From: Bimuria novae-zelandiae CBS 107.79
Taxonomy: Eukaryota; Ascomycota; Dothideomycetes; Pleosporales; Didymosphaeriaceae
Assembly (NCBI GenBank): GCA_010015655.1
Contig: ML976663.1
Coordinates: 614,393 to 678,392, forward strand
DNA: 64,000 nt
Reading direction: 5' to 3'
A model generated the notes under the pieces. That model had not been told where the DNA came from, did no database searches, and saw only the letters and a program-made list of their open reading frames with translations. How positions within the stretch are numbered: the first letter of the stretch is position 1; every line of letters begins with the position of its first letter. This document shows, piece after piece, positions 25,100 through 56,338 of this stretch. The position numbers and the translations under genes are program-made.

Positions 25100-25144
25100 N
25101 NNNNNNNNNNNNNNNNNNNNNNNNNNNNNNNNNNNNNNNNNNNN
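25100..25144. other. Assembly gap (45 N)
   Basis: A run of unknown bases directly follows a poly-G run. It probably marks a homopolymer that sequencing could not cross. It removes the 3' end of the WBP2-like gene. Confidence 0.98.
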
Positions 25145-26949: not shown

Positions 26950-29388
26950 TCACTCCTCCCCAACCTTCTTCCATATCCCAGTCGCCCTCGCCAGGATATG
27001 TCCCTTCCCCAGCGTATCAATCCAACTCCCCGCGAGCCCCACAAACTTCCACACGGTACCATCCCCGCGATCCGGCGGCTCGTTCGTCACATGCACCAGC
27101 CCCTGCGGCGCCTTCCCCTCCCACTGCTTCCACCGCAGTCTCTCCGTCTGCTGCCCATCCACCTCATCGAAGAACGCCAGTCCGGCCACGTATCCCGACC
27201 CCGGAATGTATGCCACCTCAATCTTCGTAATATCGACGCCGCTGATGTCAAGGCCCTTGTAGTGGGAGGCGTCGGAAGAGGAGTGCAGGTGGCCAAGGTG
27301 GTGATTGCAGCCATCGTGTTCCGCCTCGTCGGGGCTGTCGTGCACGCGAGCAAGCCCAATGGCCCCGATGGCGTTTTCGGCCTGCTTGAGCGCTGCCGTG
27401 GAGATCCAGCTTTTGATCGATGAGAGACTGTAGCGATGAAGCACGATGCGCCGAAGCGGATTCGCACCTGTAGACCCGCGCGGCTCCGTGAGCTCCAGCG
27501 TGCTGAAGTCTTCATACCTGCCGCCAAAGCCATATCTCGCGCGAAAATCATCGTCGCTGACCTTCGGGTCGCCGAGCATGTCGGGCTCGAACCAGATGTT
27601 GTCGTCGCGGACGTAGGCGGCGGTTTTGAGATAGGCGCCGTCGGTGGAGAGATCGGATACGATGCTGTTGTGGACGGGTACGGGAAGGCGCTCTTTGAGG
27701 ACCTCGGGATAAGCGTAGTTGGGACGTTTCATGCGCGTGGTGTTTGTCTTGGGGTCGTATTGGGCGTATGCCAGATGCGGGTGGTCGACCAGCCGCGATG
27801 CTTCCTCTGTGATCAGCGTCATCGCTTCACGACACAGCAGCCTGGCTTCATTCAGAGCAAGAGGCTCCGGCGGAATCGGATCCTGGCGGGCGTTGTTCTC
27901 CAGCAAATTCCACCCGACAGCGCCTTCCTCGACGGCGAATGTGAATGCACGCTCCATGCCCAGGCTATCGAGTGTCTTGCTCTCGCAGGGTGAGTCGCCT
28001 GCGGGACTGACAGCCAGAGCCTGCTTCGACACATCTCTAGTCGTAAGAGGCGAAAGACTTCCATTCGGTGTCTTTAGATCAGCTCTAGACGCCACTCTCC
28101 TAAGTGTCTGCGTCTTTGGTACTTTCCTCATCTTATACTGGGCCGGATTCTGCAACATCTCCCCAATCTTCTTCCAAAGCTTCTTGTACATCATGAGCGC
28201 ATCGAACAATTCCGAGGTATATAGTGCACACGGAACGTAGTTCAGTATGATAACCGGTTCTTCGTACAATTCTTTCCCGCTCTTATTGTTTTCCCCACCC
28301 TTTTGGTTCCGTGGATCGCTCTCCCATTTTCTCCTCTCTTCTAGCAGTTTGCTCCACTTCCACGCCTGGAATGAGCGCAAAGAGGTGTATCGCGTCAAGA
28401 TGGCTTGCGTGCGAGCACTCGAGCGAGCGACCATGGAGGGAAAGGCGTTTGCGACAGCGACAACGGATTGGATAGTCCAGGGCACAGACGGTTTCTTGAT
28501 CTCACCGCCACCGACCCAGTTCACGGATATGGATATCTCGGTGTTCCTGAGGGCTTCGCTGTGTTCCTTCGCGACCGCCTCACTGGCGCCGATTTCAAGC
28601 GTAGGTGGTCCGACAGCAAGCTGGACATCGACGGCTTGCTTGACAGAGCGGTACTTGCTCTTGTCGTTCAGTTTTACCGAGATGACGGCGTTGAACTCGC
28701 CGCCTTCGGTGAACCCAGAAATGAAACTGTCGCCATACACTTCTGTAAAGATCTCGAGAGGAAGGCCAGGAATATCCTGAAACTCCATCTCATCGACAGG
28801 AGATCGGGCGTCGTTGTTCACAATCACGCTGACGACGTAATTCAGCTCGCTGTCGAGGACCTTGTTTTCATTGACGAAAGATGCGTTGCCGTTTCCATGG
28901 ATTGTCCCGTATTTTATGCTCATTGAAGTTGAGATGTTAAGCGCATCCATGATGTCACTTACATTCTCGATTGCCCTGGTTGAATAGGTTACACTTTGGC
29001 TCGTAGTGGGCGTGGGTCCTGCAGGAATTTCGAAAGGCATTTCACCTACGGGTGCGGTGACAACGTCTAGTGCACCACCCAATTCCGGTGTTGGTGGTGT
29101 GGAGGGTGTTTCGATTCGGGACGCCGAGTTCGAGCTTGCCTGTGGAACCCCATTGATAGCCATAGCTGGGATCCCGCTTAGCGGTGAAATAGTGATAAAG
29201 GTGTCCGGCGTAACCGGCGGTGACGCCGGCGCTGCAATACTCTGAGGAGGACTGGGTTCGTTTGCGAATTTCTTCTGCGTCCCTGTCGATCCGACCTTGA
29301 CCGCATTTTCGAGGCGAATTTCTTGTGTGTATGTGTTGAAGCCTTGGCCAACGCGCATCGCATTGGAGTAGGGTGCTGTGAGTGACAT
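26950..29388 (-). CDS. MACPF/SNTX-like protein
   Basis: A single exon encodes 812 residues from the ATG at 29388; an in-frame start 36 codons upstream exists but lacks conserved sequence. The N-terminal region MSLTAPYSNAMRVGQGFNTY and the block beginning SDIMDALNISTSMSIKYG (about residue 147 on), followed by GNGNASFVNENKV, resemble the opening of fungal proteins of the MACPF/stonustoxin-like superfamily. In that superfamily such a domain can insert into membranes. The last 100 residues (VAYIPGSGYVAGLAFF and FVGLAGSWIDTLG) look like a beta-rich carbohydrate- or lipid-recognition domain. There is no signal peptide, so the protein is likely cytosolic or released unconventionally. The frame has no breaks. 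Membrane attack, defence or development are all possible roles; I cannot choose. Confidence 0.65.
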   Translation of the reverse strand: MSLTAPYSNAMRVGQGFNTYTQEIRLENAVKVGSTGTQKKFANEPSPPQSIAAPASPPVTPDTFITISPLSGIPAMAINGVPQASSNSASRIETPSTPPTPELGGALDVVTAPVGEMPFEIPAGPTPTTSQSVTYSTRAIENVSDIMDALNISTSMSIKYGTIHGNGNASFVNENKVLDSELNYVVSVIVNNDARSPVDEMEFQDIPGLPLEIFTEVYGDSFISGFTEGGEFNAVISVKLNDKSKYRSVKQAVDVQLAVGPPTLEIGASEAVAKEHSEALRNTEISISVNWVGGGEIKKPSVPWTIQSVVAVANAFPSMVARSSARTQAILTRYTSLRSFQAWKWSKLLEERRKWESDPRNQKGGENNKSGKELYEEPVIILNYVPCALYTSELFDALMMYKKLWKKIGEMLQNPAQYKMRKVPKTQTLRRVASRADLKTPNGSLSPLTTRDVSKQALAVSPAGDSPCESKTLDSLGMERAFTFAVEEGAVGWNLLENNARQDPIPPEPLALNEARLLCREAMTLITEEASRLVDHPHLAYAQYDPKTNTTRMKRPNYAYPEVLKERLPVPVHNSIVSDLSTDGAYLKTAAYVRDDNIWFEPDMLGDPKVSDDDFRARYGFGGRYEDFSTLELTEPRGSTGANPLRRIVLHRYSLSSIKSWISTAALKQAENAIGAIGLARVHDSPDEAEHDGCNHHLGHLHSSSDASHYKGLDISGVDITKIEVAYIPGSGYVAGLAFFDEVDGQQTERLRWKQWEGKAPQGLVHVTNEPPDRGDGTVWKFVGLAGSWIDTLGKGHILARATGIWKKVGEE

Positions 29389-32210: not shown

Positions 32211-32400
32211 ATGAAGCTCAGCCTATTCCTCACGTTCCTTTTCGCCCTCTTCTTCGGCGAGTCAGTCCTTGAGTGTCACTGCTGGTTCACTCGAATGGAC
32301 CACGACGAGGTTGTACGCGACCACATCGACAATGTAACGTCGAAAAAGAGTGTGAATGTTGAGGCAATCGTTGTTTTGATTGAGAAGCTAAGCTAGCTTA

Positions 32401-34164
32401 CAGGGTTCCGAGCCACCCGGGGTTTCGAGCCACCCCCCAAAAATCAGCCATCTCTCAGAAATCGTGTTTATTTCTATTAACTACCCAATAATTGCTACTT
32501 TATACATATAGACTAAAAAGTTTAAGCTACTGCTCTAGCTACTACTTTCTTTACTACTTTTTCTGCAGCGTTACTGTTATTTTATAACTTTAAAAAAGTA
32601 AAAGTTTATACTACTGCTATAATTACTTCTATATTTATAAAGCGTTAATTTAAGTTTATAAGAACTCTCTTTCGTAGCTACTAAGGCTTAAGAGTCTTAA
32701 ATTAAGTATAAAGTCTTTTATTCTTTATTTTTAATTATACTATTTATATATTTACAGCTGCAAGTACCTTATTTACTTTTTATAAAAGCTAGTAAGTCTT
32801 ACGACTTAATCTTTTATTTTTATAAAACTATTACTAAGCTATAAAAAATTTATAAAGGCTATAAGAGGTAGTAAAATATATTTTAGTAAATTAAGGTTAA
32901 TTCTAATAAGGTAGCGTAATAGGCCATTAAACTCCTTAAAAGGAGTTAACTACTAGCTTAATATTTGATAGATAAATTCTTATAGTAGCCTATTTAGCTT
33001 ATATAATTTTTTTTAGTAGTTATAGCCTCTTTAGCGTTATTATAGACTGTAATAAAGCGTTTCTTTTTAACTAGTGCTACGCTATTAAGATATAATAGTT
33101 CTTAAATCTAATTTTAATAAAATATCTTTACTACTAAGAAAACTAAGAGATCTAGAGGCTGTAGGACGTGTAAGAAATAAGTATATATAAATAAAAGCTA
33201 AACTTTATTCTATTTATAATGCTATAGGAATTGTAGGTTAATAAATTTACTATAACTATTTAAAATTAGCATTTGCTAGTAATTATTTAATAAAGCTATC
33301 TTTAATAAAAAGATACATTATAACTACTAAATACTTATTATATTTAATATTTAACTATTCTCTAACGTTGCCCAGAGCTAGTTAAGTATTAATTTAAATA
33401 AAAACGAAGTACTTTATAAGTTCTAGCCCATAAATATTACTACGTAGCGTAGTTTCTTTGTTATAGCTAATACGCACTTAATTATAGATACTTACTTATA
33501 ATTTTTTAGAAACTATTTATAAGCCTTCTTTTTCTAACTACTTGCGAGTACTCTAGTGTTTGCACATACACCTAGGGCCTTGCCAGTCTTATCTATATTC
33601 CACGTATCCTTAGTGCGTATCCCCAATCGTACGCAAGTCCTCTTAAAGAGCTTAAGAAATGCGCGTATCTGCTCTGGTATAGCTCCCTTAGCCCGTGCAG
33701 CCTCTATTTTTCTACCTATAATAGATACGACGCGTGGGTTGCGCTTAAAAAAGAAAGACATCTAATACTTACCTATAGGATTATTATCCCTATTTATCCT
33801 CAGGATTTAGTTTGCTATTTCTTGTATATAAGCGTATAAAGGAGGAAAAGCACGTAAATCTTTTTTAAAAATCTATTATATAAAAAACTTTTCTTATTAT
33901 AAAATTAAGTATTACTAATATTTATAATTAGTTTAGCTAGTTTATATACTACGTATTTGCGTAAAGAGCGTAGCTTAAGAAATATAATACGCCTTTATAG
34001 TAGCTTATTAAAAAAAATACTAGTATTAAAATTACTAATAGCTGCTTGTATAGCTACTTCGCGTTGGTCCATTTTGGTAGGGGTAGGTATTGAGATATCA
34101 CGATTTCTGAAGGGTGGCCGATTTCTGAGGAGTGGCTTGAAACCCCGGATGGCTCGGAACCCTA
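32401..34164 (-). mobile_element. Pogo/Fot1-type DNA transposon in the left LTR of copia A
   Basis: Terminal inverted repeats of roughly 60 bp begin C/T-AGGGTTCCGAGCC and continue with GGGGTTTC and CAGAAATCG motifs. TA lies outside both ends (32399-32400 and 34165-34166). A longer shared flank GCTAGCTTA (32392-32400 and 34168-34176) is offset by three bases on the right, so I prefer TA. The interior is mutated, but a minus-strand piece survives as a DDE transposase remnant (next entry). Confidence 0.82.
33534..33761 (-). pseudogene. DDE transposase remnant (pogo/Fot1 family)
   Basis: Contains FFKRNPRVVS and TWNIDKTGKALG, matching the region around the first catalytic Asp of DDE-1 transposases (pattern W-N-x-D-E-x-G). 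It lies inside the transposon at 32401-34164, and upstream and downstream parts are broken by stops. Confidence 0.7.
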
Positions 34165-36579
34165 TACGCTAGCTTACTCTATAGAGCTATATAGTGTGGA
34201 TCACGTGCACAGGGCCGCACGTACACGGATGGCCTAAGCTTCTATACTAAACCGTCACACACCCCTTAGCTTTATATCGATCGAGAGATAAAGCTAAAGT
34301 CTTACTTAATTAAGTAACTAAATATATAAAATTATTATTATTATTAACGCTACCCTAGAGGCGTTACGCGATATTAATAAAATAAAGCTATTAAATAAAC
34401 TTTTAATATTTAGCTTTGAAAAGGACTTTACTAGGCCTATTAGTAGCTATCTTATCTATAAGGACCTATTTAATAATAAGTTATTAGGCCTTTGCCTCTT
34501 GTTAAATCTATATTTAATAGACATTAACGTGTTAAATTTTAGTATAAAGTTAATTTAGATTCTTATTAATAATTCCTACTATTTATTAATTATTATAGTA
34601 GATCGTAGACATTATGCCTAAGTTAAATACAATACTATTAAAGAAGTAAAGCTACTTTAGTATTTATAAACTAAAAAAGGAGATTAAAAGTAATTTTAAT
34701 TTAGTAGTAAACTTAGTGATATTGCACTAAATAGTTACCTACTAATTATTAATTATTCTGTAGAGAAAGATAATTTTTATAAGCATTAATATATCTTTAT
34801 ATTATCTACGTAAGAGGCGTCTAACGCGCTAAAGAATAAAGAATTATAATAGTTATTATAGAAACCTTGAATAGCGTAGTATTAAGTTACGAGCAAGTAA
34901 CACTAGACGAGTTATATAGCTATAATATATAACTAACTTAGATTAATAAGATAGCAAGTAAGAATAATGTAGCTATAAGTAACGTTAGGTCGTGTCTAGT
35001 AAGTAATATAGGCCAGGTGGCTAACAAGCTCCTAATATAGCTTTATACGTCGAATATTAGTCCCCTTAATTAACTTATTAAGAGAGTTAACGTTAAGTAA
35101 AAAGTTAGGCTTTTTATAATATATTTGCTATATGTCATACTTCTTGCAAATTTTATTAATATATATATCTTAAATAAGCTAGATCTTCTTTTTCTAGCAA
35201 TCGCGGACAACTTAAACGCCTAGGAACTAGGCCAGATCTCTTATTACCTTAAGTCTAAATTAGTCCTTTAACTTATTCTTAAAGTCTTAATAAGGATAAG
35301 CATTCGTTGAGTAATACGCTAGTATTATATTATTAATATAAATAAATAGGATAAGCTAATTATTAATATATAAGTATAAGGAGCCTTTCATACGCTTAAG
35401 CTCTAGAAGCTTAACTGTAGCTTAGAACATATTATACTATAGAAGTGGTATATTCTTTAGACCGTAAAGGGCGCGAAGCACCTCTAGAAGGTTGTTATTT
35501 ACTTTTTAAAAATACTAAGAGTCTTAGTATATAGCTTTTAATTAAGAATAGAGTTAAAGAATACGTTAGGTACATTATATTATTTTAGCTTTAAGCTAAA
35601 GTAGTTAGTAATTATAATAATTACTTAAAAGGTGCGAGTCATAAGGATAATAGCGTAGGTAATACTAAACTACTTTTATTGGTCTCCACGTGCAATAAAT
35701 TAAGTCGTATACTTATAAAAATAATTACCCTTATTAAACTTATATATAAATACTTATATAAGTAAGATTACCTTAATACCTTTAGCCTACGTAGTTTAGT
35801 GTATTACTAAGGTCTTGCGGAAGTAGCCTTTACCTTAGACTTTTTAATACTTGCGCTTAATAGCTTTTATAAACTTAGCGCTATATAAATATAACTTTAG
35901 TTATCTAATATGCTTTAGGGCAGATGATAGCTAGTTATAATAGATATATAAGGTATTCTTTATATCCTTGTTAATAGTTATTATAGCAAAGGTATTTAGG
36001 TAATTAGTAATATTTTAAACGCCTAACTAAATTATATAAGTGTATAAATTGCCTAACTTTATTAGTTTTTAAACGCGCTTTGTAATAAGTACGTTATTTT
36101 ATAAAATATTTAGAACTTAATGCTATAAAGTATTGTCGCGGGAATTATCCCTTGTAGGTATCCTGATCGGAAGGATCAGGTGGAACAGACAAACATAACA
36201 CTAAATGCTTAGTATAAATACTACTCTTATAGCACCCTTTTATATATTACTAATTAATTAATTCGATCTCCAAACCATATACTATCTAGCTTATTTTATC
36301 CTCTATAATTATAAGCCTAGAGTTTTAGAAATGTAAGATAATTCCCCCTGCGTAATCAATTATTAGATAGATTATTTAGATAGTCTAATCTATCTAAATA
36401 CTTCTCGCGTTGCTATACTCTTGCATAACAGAGCGCACTTTGTTTCTTCCCTCGAGTATCTCGAGTAGAGCATATAGTGCTCCTCTATAAGCTCCTTCCT
36501 CTCTCTTCTTTTATTACACTAGACTTTCTTTGCCCTTAGTAGCGGGCTAAAATTTGTAATAAGTTTAGAGAAGCGCTTT

Positions 36580-39500
36580 TGTCGGTTCACAGGTAGCAAG
36601 GAATGAACAAGTAACTCTCTGTCTTTGGTATCTAGTGTCTGTATTTTCTGTGTGTTCTGTAATAGTTCTATATACCTTCCTTCCAGTTCTCGTGGATGTG
36701 AGCGAGTACCAGGTAGTGTGGAGGCGAAGGGGTTTCGGTACAGTATCAGGTTAACTGGAAGTGAGGGGGTACAAGGGTATGATTGGGTTACACAGTTCCC
36801 TTAGCGCGGAAGGCGAGGCAGTGCAGACACTGGCAGCTTTTCTTTTATAGTAAAATGAGTGTGGATCAGGTGTACACTTGCTGGAGAGGCTGTTTGCGAA
36901 AGTCAAAAGGTAATAACTATAGTGGTTGTCGTAATTATTATTAGAGCTAGTTTGTAGGGTCCTTGCGTGTTACCTATCCGTCAACTCGTATGCGCAGCGA
37001 GTTTGTATTAATAAGAATTTTTAGAGCTTTGTTTGGCGATGTTTTTGTTATAGCGTTAGCAGGGTTGTCTTGGCCATTTACCCATCGAACCTCAAATAAC
37101 TCCCTTCTCTCATAGGATTAACGTAAGGCCATAATATCAATTATTAGTCGTTTTTCCTTAGTCGTTCCTAGCTTGACAATACACTCATACAGTGAGTATG
37201 AGTCTGTACAAACTACTAGGGGGAGAGATAGCAGACTAAGCTGCTTTGTAACCATGGCAAGCGTTAAGGTAATAGAGTAGGCGAGGTTAACGCCTCCTAC
37301 CATTGCGTAGATCTCTAACGCAAGGACGCTCCAGGTCACGCGTTTGCTCTTCGCGGAGCTCCAGTAAATAAGATTACTATAAATAGTAAACTCCGTGTCA
37401 GCAGCGTCTTCCAGGGCTACTACAATTATGTAGCCAATCTAGCTACTTAAATCTTTGTTGTTTGCGAAGGAGCTATTAACAAACATAAAGACTTTAGCCT
37501 AAGCTAAGTTAAGTGCCTTATAGGTGAGGCCACGATTAAGATTATTTAGTTACCACTGTAGGCGTTTGTTTAACGCGTTAACGTCGTCGACGGTAGGCTC
37601 CTAAGTTTGTGCAGCAATAGAGAGGTTAAAAGTCGCCTCTAGTTAGTAGATGCTCGCGATGTAGGCGCCGCGAGCCCTCTACTTAACGTACTATTATTAA
37701 TAGTTAGCTAAGCTTGCGTTAATAAGCTAAATCTTCTTGCCTTAATCCTTTTGTTATAGTAAGAGCTTGCCAGTGTGATCAATCGATAGGACACAGCTAT
37801 TAAAAATTAATAAAGTAGTGGGTGTTAGCTTCTCCTTTAGCTTAGCTGTAAACGTTAACTCCTTCTCCTCTAGGTTAGAGAAACATTCATCCGCGAGGAT
37901 AAGTGTGTCGTCAGTCTACATGCTTACTATGCCAAAGGCGTCCTGGGTAGTGGTCACAAGCAGGTATGGGTCATATGTTAAGGTCTCTATATAAAGCTTT
38001 TCCTTATAATAAGCGCTATACGTTGCCCACTAATAGGTACTGGCTTCAGCTAGGCCGTATAGGGGCTTCTTAACTATCATAACTATGCTAGGTGGATACT
38101 TGTATTTAATTTCCTTAGGTAAATAGGCGATAACTACTCAGTTAAGCTTTATGCGTAACTATACATATGCTTAGGTAATATCTCGCAGCCAGAGCGAGAT
38201 CTCTCTATTTATTAATGTAACTCTATTACGCATAAGTAAAGGAGCAATAGCTAGTATAATTCGTTAGCTAGCTCGCTAGATAGTTAGTAATTAGGTAAGG
38301 ATTATTACTTTGCTGTTATCTTAATAGCCTTGCACTACGAGGCGTAATTTCTCGTATAGGGTAGTAATAGTCTTGCCTTTAATTTCGCGTACTAGTCGCG
38401 ACTTAAAAATCCGTCCTTAGTACTTACAGGGATCGTATTACTTAAAGCGGAAGACTCCATTAGCAATAAGGCTATTAATTTCCTTATTATCTAATAGCTT
38501 AAATAGTTAGCCAGGTGTAGTTATCCTTTACTCTTTACGTAACTAAATAGAAAGTAGCCAGTCAGTATTCTCTTTATGCGTTATAAAGACCTCTATCATG
38601 TAAGCTTCGTTAGGCGCTGTATAAATAGTGTACGCTATAGGAGCCGCACGAGCTGTCCTAGAAGGGTTCGCGCGGGCTATAGTAGCTTTAGGCTTATTCT
38701 TACTACCTTTAGGTTAGCCGCGTTTTCGTTAAGAGAGTTTAGAAGCTTGTTCTTAATACTAGTTAGTTACACTAGTTTTGCTATCTTTATCCTAGTTATC
38801 GTCTCCGTTGTCTAGCATATCTATTGGGTGGCTATTATCCTTATTGTCAATCGCTAGTGGCGTGGCTAGTTCGTTGTTTGTCGGGGAGGTATCCGTGTAG
38901 TACGGCTTAACAACTGTTAAGCGGAAATTTGTAGGGCCATGCGGCAGCTATATTGTACAGGTCTCATTTATTACAGCAATAAGCTTATAGGGCCCCATCT
39001 ATCTATCCTTCTCGCGCCAGACGCGCACGTCGGAGTTAATAGGTAGTATAGTTATTTTAAGCGTCGTAGGTCCATTACGCGTTGCTAGCGCATCGTTAAT
39101 TTGGCGCGTCTTGTGTACCCGTCGTACCTCTCTTATAGCCTTTTTAATAACAGCAGCGCCAATAGATGAGCGTAGAGTAGAGCAGAGGCCTTTAAAAGTA
39201 GGCGCTAGGGCGAAGAGGGTAAGGTTATAGTCCTTAATGCCACTACACGCGTTAAGTAGTTATTCGCGCAGCACGTTGTTACCTTAGTAGTTATAGCCTA
39301 GCCCGCGTTAAAGCTTCTAGAGCTTGTTAATAAGTAATTAGAGAGTATTAAGACAAGATTTATTAGGGTAGGCGCTAATTATACGTGCTAGCGTAGTTAT
39401 TCTCTACTCGCTAAGGTATAATTAATAATTTTCCTTATTATAGAAGTAGCTCTTCGTTATACCTATTATTATCTTAAGATCATAGCCCTGACCCGCGAGG

Positions 39501-40970
39501 CGGTTATAGTAGTAGTTAGACGCTCTGTCTTTTAGCATAATAGAAAAAGCTCGATCCTAGTGTTACTTAGGTAGCCCTATCTTGCTGCAATTGTCTCGAA
39601 AGATTCTAAATTTAGTATTAAACACGTTATACAGCTCACCTCTAAAGCGCTTCTTATTGTCGTATAGCTTGCAGAGGTCTGTAATAAGTCAATGTGCGTT
39701 ATTAAGACGTGTAGCGTCTATAGGGCTTTCGTGCTATAGATAGGGGTTGTACGTATTATACTAGTTCAGCTACTACGTAGAGGATAAAGGCGCGTTGTGC
39801 TACTAATAAGGGGGCAGGTATGTGGTGGGCTGCCATTTTAGTAGAGGTATAGGTTAGTAGATAGTACGTGCTATTAGAGCTAGTTAAGGAGAAGCAAGGT
39901 GCGCAGAGGGTTATTAAAAAGATTACTATAATAGAGGCGTATTATATAGAGGCAATGTCGCAAGATTTGGATTAAAGCGCGAGTTAAACCTCTTATTTAT
40001 TTTAAGCTAGTGAGCAACCTCTTTATTAGTCTATTTATAATAGTCGCCCTGCAGCGCTTCTGCGATGTTATAGGCAATTAACTTGCTATCCTTAGCTATA
40101 AAGACGCCTTACTTGCGTAGGTAGTCTTGTAATTTAGTAACAAGAAATTTATTGCCTTTGTTAAAGAGTTCTTTTGGCCATCCTTTAAAGATAATAGTTA
40201 TCTGCTCCTATAGCTCATAGTCCTCCCATTCTTTGTTTTGGGAGATCCGATAGTAGAAGAGGATGTATGTGTTTACACTCTTTATATTAATTTTCGTGAT
40301 GTCTGTATTCTTATTAATATTAAGGGGCTAGCCCTAGCTATTCTTGTTAATAAGCGCCTATTCTTCCTTCGTAAGGTGGTCGGTGAAAGGCATCGTGGGA
40401 AAGCGATTTAGGGGTCGTAAGGCGTCTCTTTAAGAGAGTGAGACGCAGGTTTATTAATAGTACTATTAGTAGCGGGTACTATAGAGCGTGATAGACAGGG
40501 ACTTAGGTAAACGCTTAGAGTCTTTGTTACTTAGTGGTAGGCTACGACGCGCGAGCTTCTGGCGAAGGCGTAATAAACGCGGAGACCTAGGTAAACGCTT
40601 AGGGTCTCGTTAGCATATAGTTTAGGGTATCGCTATACTCTTCGTCGTGTCTCTTCTAGTTCTCCTTGCTGTCTGTGGTTATCTCTTATAGCATTGACTG
40701 TGAGGGTAACCACTAATCAGTGTCGGTTCACAGGTAGCAAGGAATAAACAAGTAACTCTCTGTCTTTAGTATCTAGTGTCTGTATTTTCTGTGTGTTCTG
40801 TAATAGTTCTATATACCTTCCTTCCAGTTCTCGTGGATGTGAGCGAGTACCAGGTGGTGTGGAGGCGAAGGGGTTTCGGTACAGTATTAGGTTAACTGGA
40901 AGTGAGGGGGTACAAGGGTATAATTGGGTTACACAGTTCCCTTAGCGCGGAAGGCGAGGCAGTGCAGACA
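36580..40970 (-). mobile_element. Copia C, youngest element of the nest
   Basis: LTRs of 250 bp (36580-36829 and 40721-40970) begin TGTCGG, end GCAGACA and are flanked by GCTTT (36575-36579, 40971-40975). The LTRs differ by only a handful of transitions, far fewer than those of copia A and B. The minus-strand RNase H remnant at 37118-37339 sets the orientation. The internal 3.9 kb is moderately mutated. Confidence 0.88.
37118..37339 (-). pseudogene. Copia RNase H remnant
   Basis: Contains VCTDSYSLYECIVKLGTT and KEKRLIIDIMALR, characteristic of the RNase H end of fungal Ty1/copia polyproteins. The mutated continuation downstream still suggests ERRE...VRW...DNPA. Confidence 0.75.
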
Positions 40971-43900
40971 GCTTTTTTTTAAACATATAAAATTTTTTAC
41001 TCTTCTAGTAAGCATAGTGCGCCTAACTAATTTAAAAGAGCTAGCTAGTACAGTTTATATAGCTTAAGTTTTAGGCTATATATTAAGGCGTTTAGAATTA
41101 CGTTAATCTAAACACTTTAATTACTAATAACTATATAGTAACTATTTTTAATCTTTTAGAACTCCTAGAGCTTTTAAAATTATTTAATAATAAATATAAC
41201 AATATAAATAAGCTTAATAAAGAATAGCTAAAAAGAGTAGCGCGTCGTAGTGCTTTGTAAAATAAGAAATCTTTTAAAGAGCGTAGAAAGAATTGTGCTA
41301 ATTACTAAAATAAAGCCTTACGCTAATACTAGTTAAAGGTAAGTAATTATAAGACGCACTTAGCTAAGCACACCACTAGAATATAGTAAGTATAGAATAT
41401 ATTTAATTAGGTAGTTAGGACTATTAATACGCAGCTCCTAACACCTACTATAATAAGTATTAGTAACTAAGAAAGTTCTACCTTATAAATAATTATATAA
41501 TACTTTAAAGGGAAGCTCGCCTTATTAGACATAATAATATTTAATTAAATTTAATAAGAATACTGTACCCAGCTTAAATAAGCTTGCTAAGAAAGAATAA
41601 ATCTAAAATAATGGTATAAGGAGTAGAGTGCTCTTTATATACTAGTCTCGTAGTATAAGATCCTAGAAATTAAAAGAAAAATTGCGGTAATTAACTTCCT
41701 AAGCGCTATAGTAAATAAAATAGCTCTTAAATAGGCTTAAATTTAGCATGCTAATAATAAATAATAGTAGATTCTAAGTAAGCGCTTGCTTATCCTAAAG
41801 GAAGTTAGTAAAATCTTTTTAGCTTACTTTAATATATAAGCTTTAAGCTTAGACTCTAAACTAGTAATTTTTATAACGCTTAGCGGATAGAGCACTTTCA
41901 AATCTAATAATAAAGCTAAATTAAAGTAGTATTTACGCGTATAGCTATGGCGTATACTCCTTAAACAAGGACTAAGTAGCTAGTTATTATAGGCGCGACT
42001 TTAAAATAAAGCTAAAAGGTTATATTAAATATTTAGTAGGCTATAGAGCTTTTAATATTTATAGAATATAAGTACTAGTACTTTACTAGTTTATTACTAA
42101 ACGTAATGTCACATTTAATAAAAATTATTTTTATTAAGTAGAGGAAGATTTAGTAATTATATAAAAAAAAAGTAATAAAGCTTGCTAATATTTTTTTAAA
42201 GGTAAGCTAATTAACGCTAAAATAGTCTTTAAAAATCTTCCTAAGCACTCTAGCGCGTAACCTAAAACGTAAATAAAATATAAAAATTAGGTAATACTTT
42301 TTAGGCACTAGCTTAGAGGCGTAACTAATTAAAAAAAGTAGGTTTTAAAATAGCTTATTAAAGTAAAGCTTAACTAATTAGATAGTAGGCGCACGAGCTA
42401 CTAGCTAGACTAATAAGTAATTAAAAATTTATATATAGCACCTTAATTACCTAGGCCTTATAATACTAGAATATACGCCCGCTCCTATGTATTAGCGCGA
42501 TAAAGATTATACTAGTAGCCTACAAAAAGTGCACTCCACTAGTAGAGCAGGCCAGCTAGGATTAAGGCGAATAAGCCAATAATAAGAGCCACTAAGCTCC
42601 GTGGATACCTCTCGAAGTGGTATACGAGACTCTAAGATATCAAACGAAGTAGAACTATTACACCCTATACAAAGACAATATAAGCGCTAGGAATAGGGGC
42701 CTGCTACGCGTTTAAGCTACAGATAGCATTGCTAAGATCTTAATAATCATAGCACGCTAGGGAGTAATACAAGAAATAATAATATATTTATAATAATTAA
42801 TAGCCTAGTAATTAAGCGCTTAAAAAAGTTATAGCTTAATTTTCTATACTCCTTTCTCTTTAGTATTATAGAAGACTAGGGAGCTTATAAAAAGCTTATT
42901 ATAATTAATCTAATAGTGCAGGCTGCCCTACTAACTAAGGTAATAAAGCTAAAGTTAGAAGCTTGCTTTTATATAGGCGAGCTCCCTCTTCTACCTATAA
43001 TATAGAAATAGCTTATCTTATATAAGCTTAGAGAGCTCTTTATTAATACTACTTATAAGGAGATTATAATGCTATTAAAAAAGAGAGCCTAAGAAGAGGT
43101 TTTAAATAACTTATTAAAAGAGCGCCTACTCCCACTAAAGTAAGTCTTTACCTGTAAGTTTAATAAGGATAGCTTCTTTATAAAGTGTAAAGCTTAAATA
43201 GTTAGAAGAGGTAACTTGTAGTAGATTAACTAAATATTTTTTATATACACTACCATGCTTGCAGTAAGGTCCTTTAGGACTATAGTTATAATTATAGTAG
43301 AATTTAACCTAGAAATATTACAATATAATATTATAGAAGCTGTCTTAAATACTTTAATTATCGAAAGCAATTTAGTGCTCTATAAGCTACTAGATAGCTT
43401 TAAAAAGTCTAGGATATATATAAAGCTTAAATAAGCGCTATATAGACTAAGAGACTCATCACTACTATAGTATAAGGAGTTCTTAAGTACCCTAGTAGAA
43501 GCTAGCCTTACTTCTTCCAAAGAAGAGCTCTATTTATTTTTTAATAAAGAGCAGAGGATCTTTATATTATTCTATGTAAATAATATTCTCCTTCTCTATT
43601 ATTAATAGTATAAGAAAGAAGCTCTTAAGCATATTAAGTAAATTAAGAATAAATATAATCTTAAGAACTGTAGTCTAATAAAGTAGTTTTTAGGGGTTTA
43701 AGTAATTAAGGATAGAGCTACTAAAACAATCGCCTTAGTCTATAACACGTATATTAAGAAAATTACTAAAAACTTTAAACTAGAAAGCATAGCGTGCTTT
43801 TTAAAGATACTACTACTATTAGTAGAGCTTATAAAGAATAAGGGTAACGCTTTAAAGTAAGAAGTTAAAGTATACTAAGAGCGTGTAGGTTTAGCGCTTT

Positions 43901-46900
43901 ATATAGTAATTATACTACGCCTAGACGCTGCTTTCGCTGTTATAAAGCTCTTATATTTTCTAATAAACCTAAGCAAAGCTTATTTTAAGGCAGTAAAGCG
44001 CCTAATTATCTTTTTATTTAATTTACGCTAGGAAGCAATCTGTTATGAAGCTATACTAAGCCTAGAGCTTTTAATATATAGTAACATATTATTTATAAAT
44101 AATCTGAAAATTTAGCGATTATCCTATAGCTATATTACAATACTTTTTAAGAGTGTAATAGTATGGAAGACCGCTCGCCAGCCCACCGTAATAGCATCTA
44201 CTACTAAAGCTAAGCTAATTACCCTCGAGCATGTAGGAAAAGAAGTAATAGCTTTAAAAACATTTTTTACTAAGCTATTACTAGACCTAAGCTACGTTTA
44301 GAAGATCTATTATAATAATAAGTAAATAATCAGACTAGTAGTAAGTATAAATAAAAGGAACATAACTAGCCTACGCTATATTAATATAAAAAATATATAC
44401 CTATGCTAGGAGCACGTAAAAGGCTCCTTTAAAGTAGAATACATGAAGATAAGAAACATACCTATAGATAGATTAATAAAAGCTCTTTTAAAATAATAGT
44501 TTAACTATTTTAAACGGTAGCTAAACTTTAAAGGTATAGAAAAGTAGATTATAATTCTGCTAAGAAATAGCTTAGAAGCTCGTAGTTAACGTCTAGAAAC
44601 TTGCTAAGCTAGGGGGTGTGTTGCGGGAATTATCCCTTATAGGTACCCTAATTAGAAGGATTAGGTGGTACGGGTAAATATAATACTAAATTCTTAGTAT
44701 AAATACTACTTTTATAGCAACTTTTTATATATTACTAATTAATCAATTTGATCTCCGAACTATATACTATCCAGCTCGTTTTACCCTCCACAAGTATTAT
44801 TACCTCATTAGTTAGATATATAGCCTTTAATTTTATTTGCTAATTAATTAGTAACCTCTTACCATAAGGACGTAGAATAGAAGTTATAAGCGTAGTAGCG
44901 CCTTATAAGATAGTCTACTATATAATTAAGAAAAGCTAATATATCTATAAAGTTATTAAAGGATAATTAATATTAAGAGGTTAATAGTCTATTATTATTC
45001 CCTACTAACGGCTTGATCGACTGTTCGGTAGGCGTTAGTGTTGGTATTACTATAGATTTAGCCTTATTATAGAGACGTTACTAACGTATTATTATAAGTT
45101 CCTTAATAGATACATTGTTATCCTCGTACGTCTTAGGGAGGTTAAGTAACTTAATAATCTCTCTAATTACTAAGATATTTACGTAACTATCTTAGTCTTT
45201 ATAAAAAGTAAATATATTAAATACCATGTCTCGCGTACGAATAACTTAATTCTTTATTAATAACTAAATCTAAAAGATATTAGTGCTATTATAGCCTATA
45301 AGGTGGCTACGTAGGATGCGCGAGACTATCTTTACTTTATATAATAAGTATTTATTAGGGACGTATGCGCGATAACTAATTAATTAAAAATAGCTTATTA
45401 TAAGCTTTGTATTTTAGATAACTTTATATAGCGTGCGCTATTTAAGGACTTCAGATAGCATTTAATTAAGTAGGAATGATACTATTTTTAACTTATTTAT
45501 TAATTACTTTAAAAAGTTACCCTAGAGACATAGGGTGCGGGCCTTTATTATAATTAGCTTATTAACAATTTTAGTACCTTTATTTTACGCAATAGTATCT
45601 AGAGCGTATAGTTTAAAGTTTATACCTAGGTTAGCGTAAAGTTACTTTATAAAATTAATAATACTATACTTAGCGTTAAGCTTAATCGCGATTATATTAT
45701 AATTATACTATCGCTAGATTTATTATATAGTATTTTATAGCTATTAGCCTAGCTAAGTCATTAATTTTATTAAAAAGAACCCTACTTCGTGCTAACGTAA
45801 GTATTAATAAATAGCATAAGTACTCTAAGTATTACTATTATAATAAAACTCTCTCTATTACTATAGTTAGATAAGGTTAATTAAAATTTAATGAAAAGGC
45901 GAACAGCATCCTTTAACGTATAATAAAAGATCTACTCTATTAACTTTAATTCTATATAGATTTAATAAAAGTCTTAATTAGTAAGTCTTTCTACTATTAC
46001 TCTTTTAATATTATTATTTAGTTGGTCTATAATCATGCATCCTAGATAGCCCTAAACCTTATAGGCTAGCGTTAAAGAAATCTTTTAGGTCTTCTTTAGT
46101 GCCTCTAATAGACGCGTTTAAATAGCTATTACGAGTAAGAATAACTTTATTAGATAATAAAAGAAATCTACGTTAACAAGCTAATAGTCCATATAGTATT
46201 CTAGGTAAGTAATAACGTCGTGTTTATTATATAGTATATCTTAACCTAAGTTAAAGTAAATACTATTATCGCCATAGCGTCTAAGTCTAACAACGCTTAT
46301 AATAAAACTAAGTACTAGGGCAATATAAGTAATTAATATTAGTATTATACTAGTTAGTATATTAACTATAAAAGCTATCTTGTCTTAGGTCTTAATCTTA
46401 TAGTAGTACTTACCTATTTTAATAATTATACTAGTATTCTTAACGCGCTCCTGTTCCCTGCCTATCTAATTAGTTATATTAATAACGTAGGTATTAGAAC
46501 CTAAGTTAAGGATCTATTATCTTAGAAAAGTATAATATAGTTAATAATAATAATAATAATAGTTAACTTATTTAGTACGATTACGTTATAGTTATTAGCT
46601 AAAATAGTTAAGACTTTGCTTACTATACTATATAAGCTTATTATAAAAGCTAAGCTACTATTACTTAGTGGACGTCCGTTATTAAGTTAGATAGCTATAG
46701 TGGGTAGTGTTATCTTTAGGAAACGCCTATTTATTTTATTTACTACCTTCTATATTTACATAAGTAGGCTAAATTTATTTTATAAAACTTAATTAATACG
46801 CTAGCGCGTAGTAAGATTTTCCTAAAAGTTACTTAGTTATAAGTAAAAGTCCTTATTAAGATAGTAGTATAAGCTATATTAGTATTTATTATTATAGAAA

Positions 46901-47589
46901 CATACGCTCTTTAGCGCTTAACTTTTAGCCTTATTATTATTTTACGTCTTTAATACTTAAAGGTCACCTGCTATACTATTAAGCTTCTAGGAACTAAGTT
47001 AGACTTATTAAATATACGTTGTAGATATAGAGACGTAATCCTTTAGCGTAACTATTTACGTATTATTATTCTCGTACTTAAATAGCTTAATTAGCTTAGG
47101 TATGGCGTATTTAGGATTAATACTTTTAATAATTATTTAAAAGTCTTCTTATACGCGTATACCTTTTATATTAAGTAAATTAATTTTAGCACACTACCTA
47201 ATAACTTTAATTTATAATTACAGCTAGTTTTTAAAATTATATAACTTTACCAGGGTATATAAGCGCTTATAGTTATTAATTAGATTATATTAGTAGACTG
47301 ATATTAATAGCGTAAGGTACTTTTTAAGGAAGATAAGCCGTGCGTATAGCGTATCCTTATTATATAGTAAGTAAATATAGTACTTAGTAATTATCTTATT
47401 AATATTAATATTTAGGTTTTAAAGTGTCTACTTCTACTTAAGGTAGCAGGCATATTACTTCTTATATTAGTTATACGTAAATTAATAGCGTCGAAATTTA
47501 GTATTATTAAGATTAATATTAGTATATATTATACTTGTTGAATGGGCTCTTTTAGCTAGCTACTTATGGGATAAGCACTTAAGTAGTAA

Positions 47590-47850
47590 GAGTAAGAGTA
47601 GTGTACGGTGTGCACAGCGTACGGATGGTAGGGGTGGGCAATAACATCTGGTTCTTACTTGTCTTGTTCGTCGTACGGACGAAAAGGAGAATATGTACAT
47701 GTTCGCGCACGGCTGTTCGCGCACGTGCACGCGCATCCTTCTCGCGCGATAACTAGTATTCCGACCGTAACGCTGCTGCGTACGGACAATACTAAATATT
47801 TTAGTAACTTTATATTAGTGCGCTATAGGCTCGACAGGCTCTATAAGTAG
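47590..47850. other. GC-normal island inside copia A
   Basis: About 260 bp retains ordinary GC and many CpA and CpG dinucleotides inside an otherwise AT-rich element. It includes a repeated GTTCGCGCAC. It may be a late insertion, though no clear inverted repeat or duplication was found. Confidence 0.4.
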
Positions 47851-48350
47851 AGGCAGGTTAGCTATAGCGACGTTAGGTTTATAATACTGCTATAGATCGT
47901 GCTGCTGTGCGGTATCCTTATAAAGAAGAATCTATACCTGCTAGTTCTTAGGTTTATTAAGGACTACTATAATACGTGTTATTATAAAATTAGATTCTAT
48001 TACTATTATAGAGTTATGCAGCTATTACACAAGTCGTATATAGTAAGTATTATAGGATTGTTATAAATAATTACAAAATTATAGATAAGTAGTAGTAGTC
48101 TTAGTAGGTGCAAACTAGGCTTATAACTATAATATTAAAAAAAAAGTGTAAGTATTAAGGTAATTATTGTTTTAATTAAGAAGCTACTCTATAGAGCAAT
48201 ATAGTGTGGATCACGTGCACAGGGCCGCACGTACGCGGGTGGCCCAAGCTTCTATACTGAACCGTCACAGACAACGTCTTGACTGAGACGTGCTGCAAGT
48301 ACCTCAAGGGCAACTTCAACAACAATTTGAGCCATCCCTGTAACTGCTAA

Positions 48351-51255: not shown

Positions 51256-52014
51256 ACTACCAGCAACTCTACGCTGCCTTAATACGGTGGAAGTGCGTAG
51301 TATATACTGTATTAGGCTTGGAGATCTGCAGCTCAAGCTGCCTATACCGCAGCCTCTTTATGGCCGAGGACTGTAGAGACAATATTACGCTATGGAAGTA
51401 TTTCTAGCCATCTCTACAACGGATAAGTGTATACCATAGGTAATTGGTCTCAAGGCAATGGATGCTGCCTTAAGGTCCAATGGTCTGACCGCTCTGACTT
51501 CGTATGCACAAGATCAGGCAAATCGAGCTCGTGCGGAAACACTAACTCGTCTGATTGGCGTCCCTTCAACGGACTGCCTTTCGCGCTGCTGTTCTTGCTG
51601 TGCAGCGCGGATCCTTGCGACCGTGTGCGAAAGGCAGATCCCACCCATGAGAAAGTAGGCTTCTTGGACTTCCAAGAACAGCAGCGCGAAAGGCAGCCCG
51701 TTGAAGGGACGCCAATCGGACGAGTTAGTGTTTCCGCACGAGCTCGATTTGCCTGATCTTGTGCATACGAAGTCAGAGCGGTCAGACCATTGGACCTTAA
51801 GGCAGCATCCATTGCCTTGAGACCAATTACCTATGGTATACACTTATCCGTTGTAGAGATGGCTAGAAATACTTCCATAGCGTAATATTGTCTCTACAGT
51901 CCTCGGCCATAAAGAGGCTGCGGTATAGGCAGCTTGAGCTGCAGATCTCCAAGCCTAATACAGTATATACTACGCACTTCCACCGTATTAAGGCAGTGTA
52001 GAGTTGCTGGTAGT
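51256..52014. repeat. Near-perfect inverted repeat, 341-bp arms, 77-bp loop
   Basis: The arms at 51256-51596 and 51674-52014 are reverse complements with only a few mismatches. Both run from ACTACCAGCAACTCTAC to GCGCTGCTGTTCTT at the loop. The arms are GC-normal and contain no recognised protein or RNA family. No target duplication is evident at the outer edges. It may be a foldback element, an inverted duplication or an assembly chimera. Confidence 0.9.
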
Positions 52015-52086
52015 GTCGCGGGTGTGCAGTAGCTGGGGCTGCCGGGGCTGCGGGGCTAGGCGTTGCGCGCTAGACTCCCGACGTTA

Positions 52087-54219
52087 CCGTGCCGAGACAG
52101 TCAGTGCGCAGAGACAAGCAATGCGCACCCCACAACAATCTATCCCCAACTTTGACGCGCCGCATCTCCAACAATATGGACCCGATTAAGGCCACGGTTG
52201 CAGCGATCGAATCGCTAGAACCAGGAGAATCTTTTACATATACAGAAATTGCAAAAAGATTTAGTATGGTTCGCTCTACGTTAACGCGCAGGCACTAACG
52301 CGTTATAAAAGGACGCTAACTCGCTAACTAAGATTAATAAAACCTTAATAACTAATAAGAGAAGGGGCTTCTATAGTATATATAGTATCTTACTAGAAGA
52401 GGGCTACCTCCTACGCGGAGAATAATACAGAACTTTATATTAAAAATTACTAAAAAGGACGTCTCTATATAATAGGTTAATTACTTTATTAGGCGCTACT
52501 ACAACTCCTTAATTTTATAATAGATAATTAGGCTAGATAGCAATTGCTATAACGCTAATTTAGGGGCAAAATATAAGCTTTATTTTAAGCTTCTATATAA
52601 GAAGATAGCGTAGTATGGCGTAGAGCCTTAGCATATCTATAATATGGACGAGAAAGGCTTCCTACTTAGCATCACGGGCAGGTTAAAAAGGATCTTTAAT
52701 AGGCCTCTATATGAGAGTCGCCAAGTCAGGCAATCTATCCAGGATGGCAGCCGTGAGTGGATCTCGCTCATCGCATGCGTGTGCGCTAACAGATCTACTA
52801 TTACTCTATTACTAATCTATTAATCTAACGCTAAAACTCTATAATTAAGCTAGGTTAAAGAAATTAACGCTAACTTTTATAGAGTCTTTATTAGCTTATT
52901 AACCTCTAGATAGTTAAACAACAAGATAGGGCTTTAATAGCTTAAACAAGTATTTAATTACTATATAAAGGAGAAAACTAAAAAAGCTCGACGCGCATAT
53001 TAACTTCTAATACTAAATAAGTATAGATCTTACGTTATAATAGATTTTATTAACTATTATAATAGTAATAAGATCCTCTTAGTAATATTTCCTTCTTATT
53101 TAACTTATACGCTATAGCCTCTAGACGTCTACGTATTTAAGTTTTTTTTTACTACTTATAGTAACGAGCTCTCTATATATCTCTATAGAAGTTAAGGCCT
53201 ATTAATAATTACTAAAAGAGACTTCTTTATAATATTCTAGAGGGCATAGACAACGTTAGTTACGCTATAATTAGTTATTAAAGCTTTTAAGTATATAAGT
53301 ATCTTGCTACTAGATCCTACGCCTATCCTCTATTAATTTAATAAAGATTACTTTCTAGAATAAAGATTACGTAAGAGCTCTACATTAGTACTTAGCGCGT
53401 TAGATTAGCGTAAAATAGAGTAACTTTTACGCTCTATAGTTAAAGATATCTTAGTAGAGGAGACGCGTAAGCTTAGCTAAATAATATACTTAATTTCTAT
53501 ATAAAAGTAGCTCCTAAAGTATAAGAATTAGAGCCTATAAGACACTCTTATTAACTAAAGACAGCGTTCGATAAAGGGCAAGACTCTACTTATTAAGTAG
53601 TCAGATAAGGGGCATAGAGAAGCTATTTTCTAGTCCCCTATCCGCGTATAGAGGGCGCGCGACTTGCGTAATTAATAAAAAGCTAAATAATAATAATTAT
53701 AACTTTAAAAAGAAGAGCAAAGAAAGATATAGATAGTAAATAAATAGCTAAAAGCTTATTTACTATAGGAGAAGCGTGTTACGCGTGTAGTAGCTAAAAA
53801 TACGTAGGCTAAGAAGAGAGCTAATTAAGCTACTAAGCAACGCCTTTATTAATAGGCTTATAAGGCTTAATAATAACTTTAAAAACGTCTTAAAATTGCC
53901 TAAAAAGAAAGGTAAAGAGCTTTAAAAGCTACTTTTATAGTAACTAAAAAAAAAAACCTGTATTAGTACTTACATGCGTTAATAAGGTAGTATTAGCACT
54001 ATAAATGCCCTTATTACGTAAGAGCTAAATAATTAGAACACTAAGTAAATATTTATAATTTAACTATTTAGTAAGTTACTATAGCTCTACAAGACCTTAA
54101 CTCTAGAAAATCTCGTGATAATAGCTATTATAGGCGTCTCTATAGCTTTATGTTGCTGGCCGGGCGATCTTGTTGGGGTGCGCATTGCTTGTCTCTGCGC
54201 ACTGACTGTCTCGGCACGG
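52087..54219 (+). mobile_element. Pogo/Fot1-type DNA transposon 1
   Basis: Inverted repeats of about 47 bp start CCGTGCCGAGACAGTCAGTG at each end, with TA outside (52085-52086 and 54220-54221). The 5' end of the transposase is readable from ATG 52176: MDPIKATVAAIESLEPGES, then YTEIAKRFSMVRSTLTRRH, the helix-turn-helix opening of fungal pogo-type transposases. A DDE core piece, YNMDEKGF, is visible near 52640. The remaining frame is ruined by RIP-type stops. Confidence 0.9.
52176..52298 (+). pseudogene. Transposase N-terminus (helix-turn-helix)
   Basis: Forty residues ending LTRRH match the Psq-type helix-turn-helix of Fot1/pogo transposases. A TAA follows at 52296-52298, and the rest is degraded. 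Confidence 0.8.
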
Positions 54220-54221
54220 TA

Positions 54222-56338
54222 CCGTGTCCGTGCACCCAACGATCGGAGTTAACCAACAATTAGGGCACAACATCTACACCAAATTTCAACGCGTAATAGC
54301 TTAACAACTATACTAGGAATTAATAATACGCTTTTAGAAATTTATAAATTAAATTTAAGTAATAAACTTATATATATAAAAATTATACTTAAGTATAATA
54401 TTAATTATAATATTTTTTACGCGTATACTACGGTGTGCAGGTCCTTTAACGTGTTACTAATAAATAGTAATATAAGCTTACTCTATAATAAGAAGAGGAT
54501 TTTATATAGTATATAAAACTACTCTTTACGTACTACTTACTACCTATAAAAGCTATAGTATAAAATTTTATATCTAAAGTAGCCTAAAATTCTTACTCTA
54601 AAAGCTAGATTATATATTTTTTATATTATTACCGCAATCGCGTTATAACTTAATAAATAATAATTATAAACTCTAATTGCTACAACGCTAAGTCTAAGTA
54701 TAAGTATAAGCTATACTTTAATATCTTATAGTAAAAGATAACTAAGTGCGATATTAAGCTAGCGTATATATATAATATAGATAAGAAGGGCTTTGTAATT
54801 AGGCTACTAAAAAGGTTAAAGCGCATCTTTAGTAAGCGTTAATATAAGAAGAAGGAGGTTAGGCAGGCTTATTAAAATAGCTTATATAAGTAAGTAAGCT
54901 TATTAGTAGTAGTCTACGCGGATAGTACTACACTATTTTTAAATATTATATTTATATTAAAAAACTCTATAATCTAGAGTTATTAGGTAGCTAATATTAA
55001 GATAAGAATATATTTAATTTACGTAGTTTTTTTACCTACAGGCTAAATAAATAATAAAATTAGATTAGCCTAGCTTAAGTAAGTATTTAACTATTATACT
55101 AAGGTAAAGGCGTATTAAAGTTATAGGCTTTTAATAGTAAATAGCTATAAAAGTTACCTAACGTAGGATTTTATTAATTACTATAATTAGAATTAGATAA
55201 TACTTATAGTATTACCCCCTTATAGTACCTAAACGCTATAGCTATTAAATATTATTTATTTTAAGCTACTCTCCTCTACGTACGCCTTTAAGCTTAATAA
55301 TTACCTCTAAAAGTTTTAAGCCCTATTACTATTAATAAAAGATAACTTTATTAGCTTATTTTAGCCTGCCTAGGTAAATATATTTATAAAAAAACTTATA
55401 TAAAACGCCTTTACTACTACAGGAATAAGCCTAATAAACCCTAACGTTATACTTAATAGATTCCGCCACATAACACCTACCAACTTAGGCTTAGTTACCT
55501 CTGGTTCTACGGCTTATTCTATAGAGGATTGGCTTAGAGCTTGCACTACACTGCGCGCGGAAGCTTAGCCAAACTATCCACTACCTATTAACCTAGGTAG
55601 AGCTCCTTTACAATAAACTAGATAGCTTATAGTAATAGCTATACCTAAAATAAAAGCGTTAAAAGTAACCTAGCAGGTAATTAGACTTATAATAGTACTA
55701 AAAGTATTATAGTAGAGTAATAGTATAGTCTTTTCGAGCTTTGCGAGAGGCGCGGGTCTATATAGTAATTACTAAGTAAGAAAAGAAGGAAGAAGAGCTA
55801 AGAAAAATAAAAATAAAAAAGTTAGTAGCTACTAATAAGCTATATAAGAATAAGATAAAAAAAAAGCATTAATAATAATAATAAAAAAAGGAAGCGCGCG
55901 CGTAGGCTAAGGTAAAAAAGTATTAAGTTATTAATACTTAAAAAGCTACTAGAGCTATTACTAAATAAGCTTTTAACTTTATAAAAGCCTTATAATAGTT
56001 TTAAAAAAGTAAGTCTATAACCTTAAAAGCTTTTATAATTAAACTAAAGTCTACGCGTTATGCTATGGGTGCTCGTAGTTTCCTAAAGCCTACGACGCCT
56101 CCTCTGCCCGCGCGCACTCACACAACCCGCAGCGGCCGCACCGCCACATTATATAGATAAATTGTATAGAGAACATTGCTCGCATAGGCCTACAGAACAC
56201 TCCACCAAAATATCTCGCGATATTAGCTATTGTACGTGACTCTGCAGCTTCATTTTTGTAGTAGGCCTCAGGGCTCGGAGCGATCGTTGGTTGACTCCGA
56301 TCGTTGGTTGACTCCGATCGTTGGGTGCACGGACACGG
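54222..56338 (+). mobile_element. Pogo/Fot1-type DNA transposon 2
   Basis: The ends begin CCGTGTCCGTGCACCCAACG. TA lies at 54220-54221, shared with transposon 1, and at 56339-56340. A mutated DDE core (YNIDKKGF) is readable on the plus strand near 54770. The right end carries three tandem copies of CGATCGTTGGTTGACTC-like sequence (about 56281-56330) where the left has one. The last 270 bp keep ordinary GC, unlike the AT-rich centre. Confidence 0.87.

What the first reader, a model, noticed from the sequence alone, without database searches (positions are those of the whole stretch)
32211..48350. A candidate effector gene cut in two by a 15.9-kb nested retrotransposon
A signal-peptide ORF is broken at GACAA (32328-32332). 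The same GACAA, followed in frame by a Cys-rich end and a stop codon, resumes at 48270. The pieces fit as a 65-residue, six-Cys secreted protein with no frame error. Transposon loss of an avirulence or necrotrophic effector gene is a known route to changed virulence; here the duplication, the frame and the two halves are all visible. The function as an effector is inferred.
Basis: partly seen in the sequence, partly recalled or inferred. Interest (0 to 1): 0.88.

Follow-up and report, generated by a model that had tools for sequence, protein, structure and literature searches.

The report
Likely fungal gene split by retrotransposon
A jumping gene landed inside what looks like a small secreted-protein gene of a fungus, and three more jumping genes later landed inside the first; the break is real but of an ordinary kind, and nothing here shows that the gene had a role in disease.

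Summary
A Ty1/copia element (32333-48269) sits between perfect 5-bp duplications, GACAA. In a search of the same genome with its LTR plus 131 bases of flank, all 39 other scored copies ended at query base 141-145, the LTR edge being 142. The '15.9-kb retrotransposon' is a copia of about 5.5 kb net carrying three later insertions: a TA-flanked DDE transposon and a second copia that holds a third LTR element. The interior is heavily RIP-biased; the flanks are not. The two gene pieces have matching frames, high GC3, a hydrophobic secretion-like start (5') and 2 + 4 cysteines. Each was found once in the genome. I searched them apart and did not join them. No homologue, Pfam or PDB match was found, but the searches are weak for short proteins, so whether an intact relative exists stays open. 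'Effector' and 'changed virulence' are unsupported. A neighbour protein points to Didymosphaeriaceae; genome size suggests Bimuria novae-zelandiae, described from one isolate (inference). This is a new example of a known kind of event.

The parts
32211..32332 (+). 5' piece of the interrupted gene: start codon, hydrophobic secretion-like N-terminus, 2 Cys; 40 codons plus the AA of the duplication
   Evidence: GC3 0.78; N-terminal hydrophobicity reached by 0 of 94 background ATG frames; one place found in the genome
32328..32332 (.). target-site duplication, left copy (GACAA)
32333..48269 (-). outer Ty1/copia LTR retrotransposon with its nested insertions (15,937 bp; about 5.5 kb net)
   Evidence: LTRs, 5-bp duplication, RVT_2 on the minus strand E=3.1e-10, same right edge in other copies
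32333..32390 (-). window-left LTR of the outer copia, first part, including one TA copy; split by the DDE element
32391..34174 (-). TIR DNA transposon, DDE_1 (Tc1/mariner/pogo-like), flanked by TA at 32389-32390 and 34175-34176; inserted in the LTR
   Evidence: inverted repeats 78 nt (TA included), 86% complementary; DDE_1 E=1.2e-6; TA read
34177..34259 (-). window-left LTR of the outer copia, second part
   Evidence: the pair 34175-34259 / 48185-48269 is 94% identical
36134..44792 (+). second copia (8,659 bp with its insertion), LTRs 36134-36307 and 44619-44792, duplication AGTAT
   Evidence: LTR identity 84.5%; RVT_2 on the plus strand E=1.3e-11
36580..40970 (-). third, innermost LTR element (4,391 bp), LTRs of 250 bp, 98% identical, duplication GCTTT
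   Evidence: strand and copia type rest on an RNase H-like frame read by eye (37118-37438 minus), which Pfam did not report
48128..48269 (-). window-right LTR of the outer copia (142 bp)
48270..48274 (.). target-site duplication, right copy (GACAA)
48270..48350 (+). 3' piece of the interrupted gene: 26 codons with 4 Cys, then TAA
   Evidence: GC3 0.85; one place found in the genome; not part of the element

Best explanation
A Ty1/copia retrotransposon integrated on the minus strand into a small single-exon gene for a secreted, cysteine-rich protein. Staggered cutting by its integrase duplicated GACAA, and the gene is now a pseudogene in two pieces. The copia was later hit by a Tc1/pogo-like DDE transposon (inside its LTR) and by a second copia, into which a third LTR element jumped. 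RIP-type mutation degraded the interior and faded inside the LTRs, roughly 60-85 bp from each host edge, so both gene pieces stayed readable. Shown: insertion, edges, duplications, nesting, RIP bias, matching frames, and no second copy found in this assembly. Inferred: that the two pieces were one expressed gene, that its product was secreted, and that it is now non-functional. The role of the product is unknown; most likely it was a lineage-specific small secreted protein whose loss was neutral or tolerated.
For: Perfect duplication. LTR edge: 39 of 39 other scored genome copies end at query base 141-145, and 8 of the 29 examined carry a 5-bp duplication. RVT_2 in the outer and second elements and DDE_1 in the TIR element. 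RIP composite +0.68 to +1.81 in the 31 500-bp steps from 32501 to 48000, against -0.39 to -0.56 for the named flank stretches and the 5' piece. Pieces tested apart: synonymous codon score reached by 172 of 4,924 (5') and 165 of 8,987 (3') stop-free background windows; GC3 reached by 252 of 4,924 and 178 of 8,987, at least 4 Cys in 26 codons in 189 of 8,987, hydrophobic start in 0 of 94 background frames. No second copy found in 77.4 Mb. The only N run of the window is at 25100-25144.
Against: No protein sharing three 5-residue words with either piece in the protein collection, no Pfam or PDB match. Each piece alone is only moderately better than background as coding sequence; background windows overlap, so the fractions are not probabilities. 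The first codon score, not corrected for amino-acid make-up, gave the 5' piece no signal (0.1; 1,087 of 4,924 windows as high) and rated two other frames of the same stretch higher (5.5 and 8.6, both with stops); for the 3' piece it was 4.2, 332 of 8,987 as high. Two reverse frames of the 3' piece are open too. No expression data.
Confidence: 0.75

Rival explanations
1. The transposon interrupted non-coding DNA; the two open stretches are chance frames that happen to be in phase.
For: No relative of either piece found. Phase alone agrees one time in three by chance. Short open frames are common, and the first codon score gave the 5' piece no signal.
Against: Both pieces have high GC3 in the same phase, the 3' piece is open in only one forward frame, and the 5' piece has a strong N-terminal hydrophobic stretch (reached by 0 of 94 background frames) and an A three bases before the ATG.
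Confidence: 0.2
2. The gene encoded a host-directed effector and its loss was selected because it changed virulence or host recognition.
For: Short, secretion-like, cysteine-rich, no known domain, next to a RIP-affected repeat tract. Precedent: AVR1 of Fusarium oxysporum truncated by Hormin. One survey reports fewer species-specific small secreted proteins in saprotrophs than in plant pathogens in general.
Against: The same survey notes effector-like small secreted proteins in saprotrophs. The likely organism is not an established pathogen (inference and the passages). No population, expression or host data.
Confidence: 0.05
3. The junctions are a scaffolding artefact at repeats.
For: The assembly has an N gap in the window (25100-25144), and the LTR family has many copies (332 first-look candidates).
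Against: No N at or between the junctions; matching duplication and phase at the two ends would be an unlikely accident of a wrong join.
Confidence: 0.03

Closest known systems
AVR1 of Fusarium oxysporum f. sp. lycopersici truncated by the hAT transposon Hormin (PMC3428301, passages read)
   Same: A coding sequence is interrupted by a transposon with a target-site duplication; the interrupted gene reads into the transposon as a chimera.
   Different: There the element is a 759-bp DNA transposon with an 8-bp duplication, an intact allele is known, and the effect on avirulence was tested. Here the element is an LTR copia with three nested insertions, and neither allele, host nor phenotype is known.
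AvrPiz-t of Magnaporthe oryzae with Pot3 or Inago2 insertions (PMC7484972, passages read)
   Same: Transposon or LTR insertion at a small secreted-protein gene.
   Different: The Inago2 insertions lie upstream of the frame, and the isolate with the 198-bp solo LTR was assayed for virulence. Here the open frame itself is split and no isolates are available.
LTR-rich, RIP-degraded tracts of Dothideomycete genomes (general knowledge; Laburnicola rhizohalophila, a member of the family, has 42.97% repeats with LTR elements the most frequent known class, PMC7936028, passages read)
   Same: LTR-rich, AT-rich repeat tracts between GC-balanced genes.
   Different: Nothing essential; here the first insertion of one tract lies inside an open frame.

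Membership tests
Ty1/copia LTR retrotransposon (outer element) | paired LTRs beginning TG and ending CA | tested here: met
   the window-left copy starts TGTAACG and both end GTCACA; the start of the right copy is altered (TATAATA), as RIP would do
Ty1/copia LTR retrotransposon (outer element) | short (5-bp) target-site duplication | tested here: met
   GACAA on both sides; 8 of 29 other copies examined also show a 5-bp duplication
Ty1/copia LTR retrotransposon (outer element) | copia-type reverse transcriptase (RVT_2) | tested here: met
   minus strand of 34260-36133, stops as X, E=3.1e-10
Ty1/copia LTR retrotransposon (outer element) | integrase before reverse transcriptase in the pol order | not tested
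Tc1/mariner/pogo-like DNA transposon (32391-34174) | terminal inverted repeats, TA duplication, DDE transposase | tested here: met
   TA at 32389-32390 and 34175-34176
RIP-affected repeat | raised TpA/ApT, lowered (CpA+TpG)/(ApC+GpT), composite above 0 | tested here: met
   composite +0.68 to +1.81 in the 500-bp steps from 32501 to 48000, negative in the flanks
Fungal effector (small secreted protein) | N-terminal signal peptide | tested here: inconclusive
   hydrophobic N-terminal stretch reached by 0 of 94 background frames; no signal-peptide predictor was run
Fungal effector (small secreted protein) | small, cysteine-rich, no known domain | tested here: inconclusive
   2 Cys in 40 codons and 4 in 26, pieces counted apart; no Pfam match to either
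Fungal effector (small secreted protein) | expression during host contact and effect on, or recognition by, a host | not testable with these tools
   no expression or host data
Transposon-inactivated avirulence gene | intact allele in other isolates with a contrasting host phenotype | not testable with these tools
   no fungal isolates or relatives held as genomes; protein searches found no candidate

The most novel reading that the evidence does not exclude
A lineage-specific cysteine-rich secreted protein was lost under selection in a fungus with no established pathogenic life, and the present 61-aa gene-LTR fusion frame (32211-32396) is still transcribed and secreted as a new short product.
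Probability: 0.04. Interest if true: 0.55.

Novelty: new member of a known kind. Interest (0 to 1): 0.25.

Why it matters
It is a clean, orderable case of an open frame lost to a copia insertion and then buried under later insertions and RIP, while the gene pieces beside it show no RIP bias. It shows how far RIP reaches from a repeat edge (here it fades inside the LTRs). If a relative keeps the gene intact, the site could date the loss. It does not by itself bear on plant disease.

Tried and rejected
Rejected: that the 3' piece belongs to the copia (all 39 other scored copies end at the LTR edge, give or take three bases). Not found: an intact second copy in this genome (those searches score only the best candidates). 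Rejected: a single 15.9-kb element (three nested insertions). Corrected: one printed TA check used coordinates one base off on the left, and my first left LTR part (32333-32391) was one base too long; the TA copies are 32389-32390 and 34175-34176 as read.

Led nowhere: protein searches with the 5' piece, read into the LTR as the window stands, and with the 3' piece in its LTR context; Pfam, PDB, Rfam on the whole window (0 matches). The negative protein searches are weak: a candidate must share three exact 5-residue words, and short secreted proteins diverge fast. The collection does hold fungal proteins (95 rows for a neighbour, one of them the window's own). Pfam did not report the innermost element's RNase H. 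The first codon score mixes amino-acid make-up with codon choice and gave the 5' piece no signal; I then made a synonymous-only score, which did. Both were trained on five uncurated open frames of the window, and the background windows overlap. Of the 39 other LTR copies scored, 29 had loci and were examined, one strand only, read 15 of those 29; a first attempt failed on a file name.

Full report
WHAT IS THERE. The start codon at 32211 opens a frame that runs 40 codons to GACAA at 32328-32332. The same GACAA stands at 48270, followed in a matching phase by a short cysteine-rich stretch and TAA at 48348-48350. Between them lies an element that begins TGTAACG at 32333 and ends GTCACA at 48269. 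I examined the pieces separately throughout and did not join them, because the finding calls the gene an effector.

ARE THE EDGES REAL? The strongest test is. The query was the right LTR plus 131 bases of sequence to its right, searched in the window's own assembly (77,445,255 bases in 191 contigs). Of 332 first-look candidates 40 were scored, one of them the window. All 39 others end at query base 141-145, 26 exactly at 142, which is window 48269. In the 29 of these 39 for which loci were held, what follows differs from copy to copy; in two (L016, L024) it is a C-rich stretch like the interior that follows the window-left LTR. Eight of the 29 show a 5-bp duplication of their own, as solo LTRs would (a loose criterion: the 5 bases recur before TG or TA near the LTR start).

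ANATOMY. The 15,937 bp are four elements. (1) The outer copia lies on the minus strand (RVT_2 E=3.1e-10); about 5.5 kb remains after subtracting the rest. (2) A 1,784-bp DNA transposon with inverted ends, DDE_1 (E=1.2e-6) and TA on both sides splits its window-left LTR. (3) A second copia, 36134-44792 (RVT_2 E=1.3e-11; duplication AGTAT), lies in its interior. (4) A 4,391-bp LTR element with 98% identical LTRs (duplication GCTTT) lies inside the second; I read a copia-like RNase H in it by eye, but Pfam did not report it. The insertion into the gene is thus the oldest of the four.

RIP. The composite RIP index is +0.68 to +1.81 in the 500-bp steps from 32501 to 48000 and negative in the flanks (-0.56 left, -0.54 right) and in the 5' piece (-0.39). 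Within the outer LTRs the first part of the window-left copy, next to host DNA, keeps G or C at 13 of 15 sites where the inner part of the right copy has A or T; in the second part it is the left, inner copy that has A or T at 4 of 5 differing sites. RIP therefore seems to have faded inside the LTRs and not to have reached the gene pieces. The LTR differences are mostly transitions, so they give no age; transversions are 2 in the outer pair, 3 in the second and 0 in the innermost, which fits the innermost being youngest but does not order the other two.

IS IT A GENE? Tested apart, GC3 is 0.78 (5') and 0.85 (3'), reached by 252 of 4,924 and 178 of 8,987 stop-free background windows. A synonymous-codon score is reached by 172 of 4,924 and 165 of 8,987. 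An uncorrected codon score gave the 5' piece no signal (1,087 of 4,924 as high, and two other frames of the stretch scored higher) and the 3' piece some (332 of 8,987). Four or more cysteines in 26 codons occur in 189 of 8,987 background windows, and none of 94 background ATG frames has as hydrophobic a start. The windows overlap, so these are rankings and not probabilities. Together this favours a small secreted-protein gene but does not prove it. Each piece was found at one place in the genome. No relative was found: protein collection, Pfam, PDB. The collection holds fungal proteins, but the search needs three shared 5-residue words, so a fast-evolving relative could be missed.

WHOSE GENOME? 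The neighbour at 26950-29388 is closest, among the named rows, to Didymosphaeria variabile (83%), Paraphaeosphaeria minitans (81%) and a Kalmusia (78%), so the fungus belongs in or near Didymosphaeriaceae (family membership: one search lists these genera). Bimuria novae-zelandiae has a genome of 78.18 Mb, the largest in the analysis of PMC8872350 (passages). It was described from a single isolate (PMC10953280, passages), and the title of its description cites a New Zealand barley field. That our assembly is this species is an inference, at perhaps 0.6.

INTERPRETATION. The insertion, its edges and its order are shown. Loss of the gene follows from the split frame, if it was a gene. An effector role and a change of virulence do not follow.

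Noticed in passing
window 25100-25144: A run of N (45 bases), the only one in the window, shows that the assembly is scaffolded here.
   Followed up: no
window 20001-24000 and 52001-56000: Two more AT-rich tracts (GC 0.29-0.32 and 0.29-0.35 in 2-kb windows), presumably further RIP-degraded repeats.
   Followed up: no
window 58439-60467: Two minus-strand frames with GPIID_WHD and with NPHP3_N/NACHT matches, perhaps pieces of one HET/NACHT-type gene with introns or damage.
   Followed up: no
window 56799-57455: A 218-aa 3-beta-HSD-like frame (PF01073, 4.1e-33, profile 1-203 of 280) that ends before the profile does; intron or truncation not checked.
   Followed up: no
window 13594-17751: A 1,385-aa serine/threonine-rich frame with a hydrophobic start and no Pfam match.
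   Followed up: no
window 26950-29388: An 812-aa frame without a Pfam match but conserved in Dothideomycetes; several relatives are named MACPF or jacalin-type lectin domain proteins by a source.
   Followed up: partly
window 32333-32390 against 48128-48186, and 34175-34259 against 48185-48269: RIP-type changes lie on the inner side of each outer LTR: 13 sites in the right copy's inner part, 4 in the left copy's inner part, with the host-side parts keeping G or C there.
   Followed up: partly
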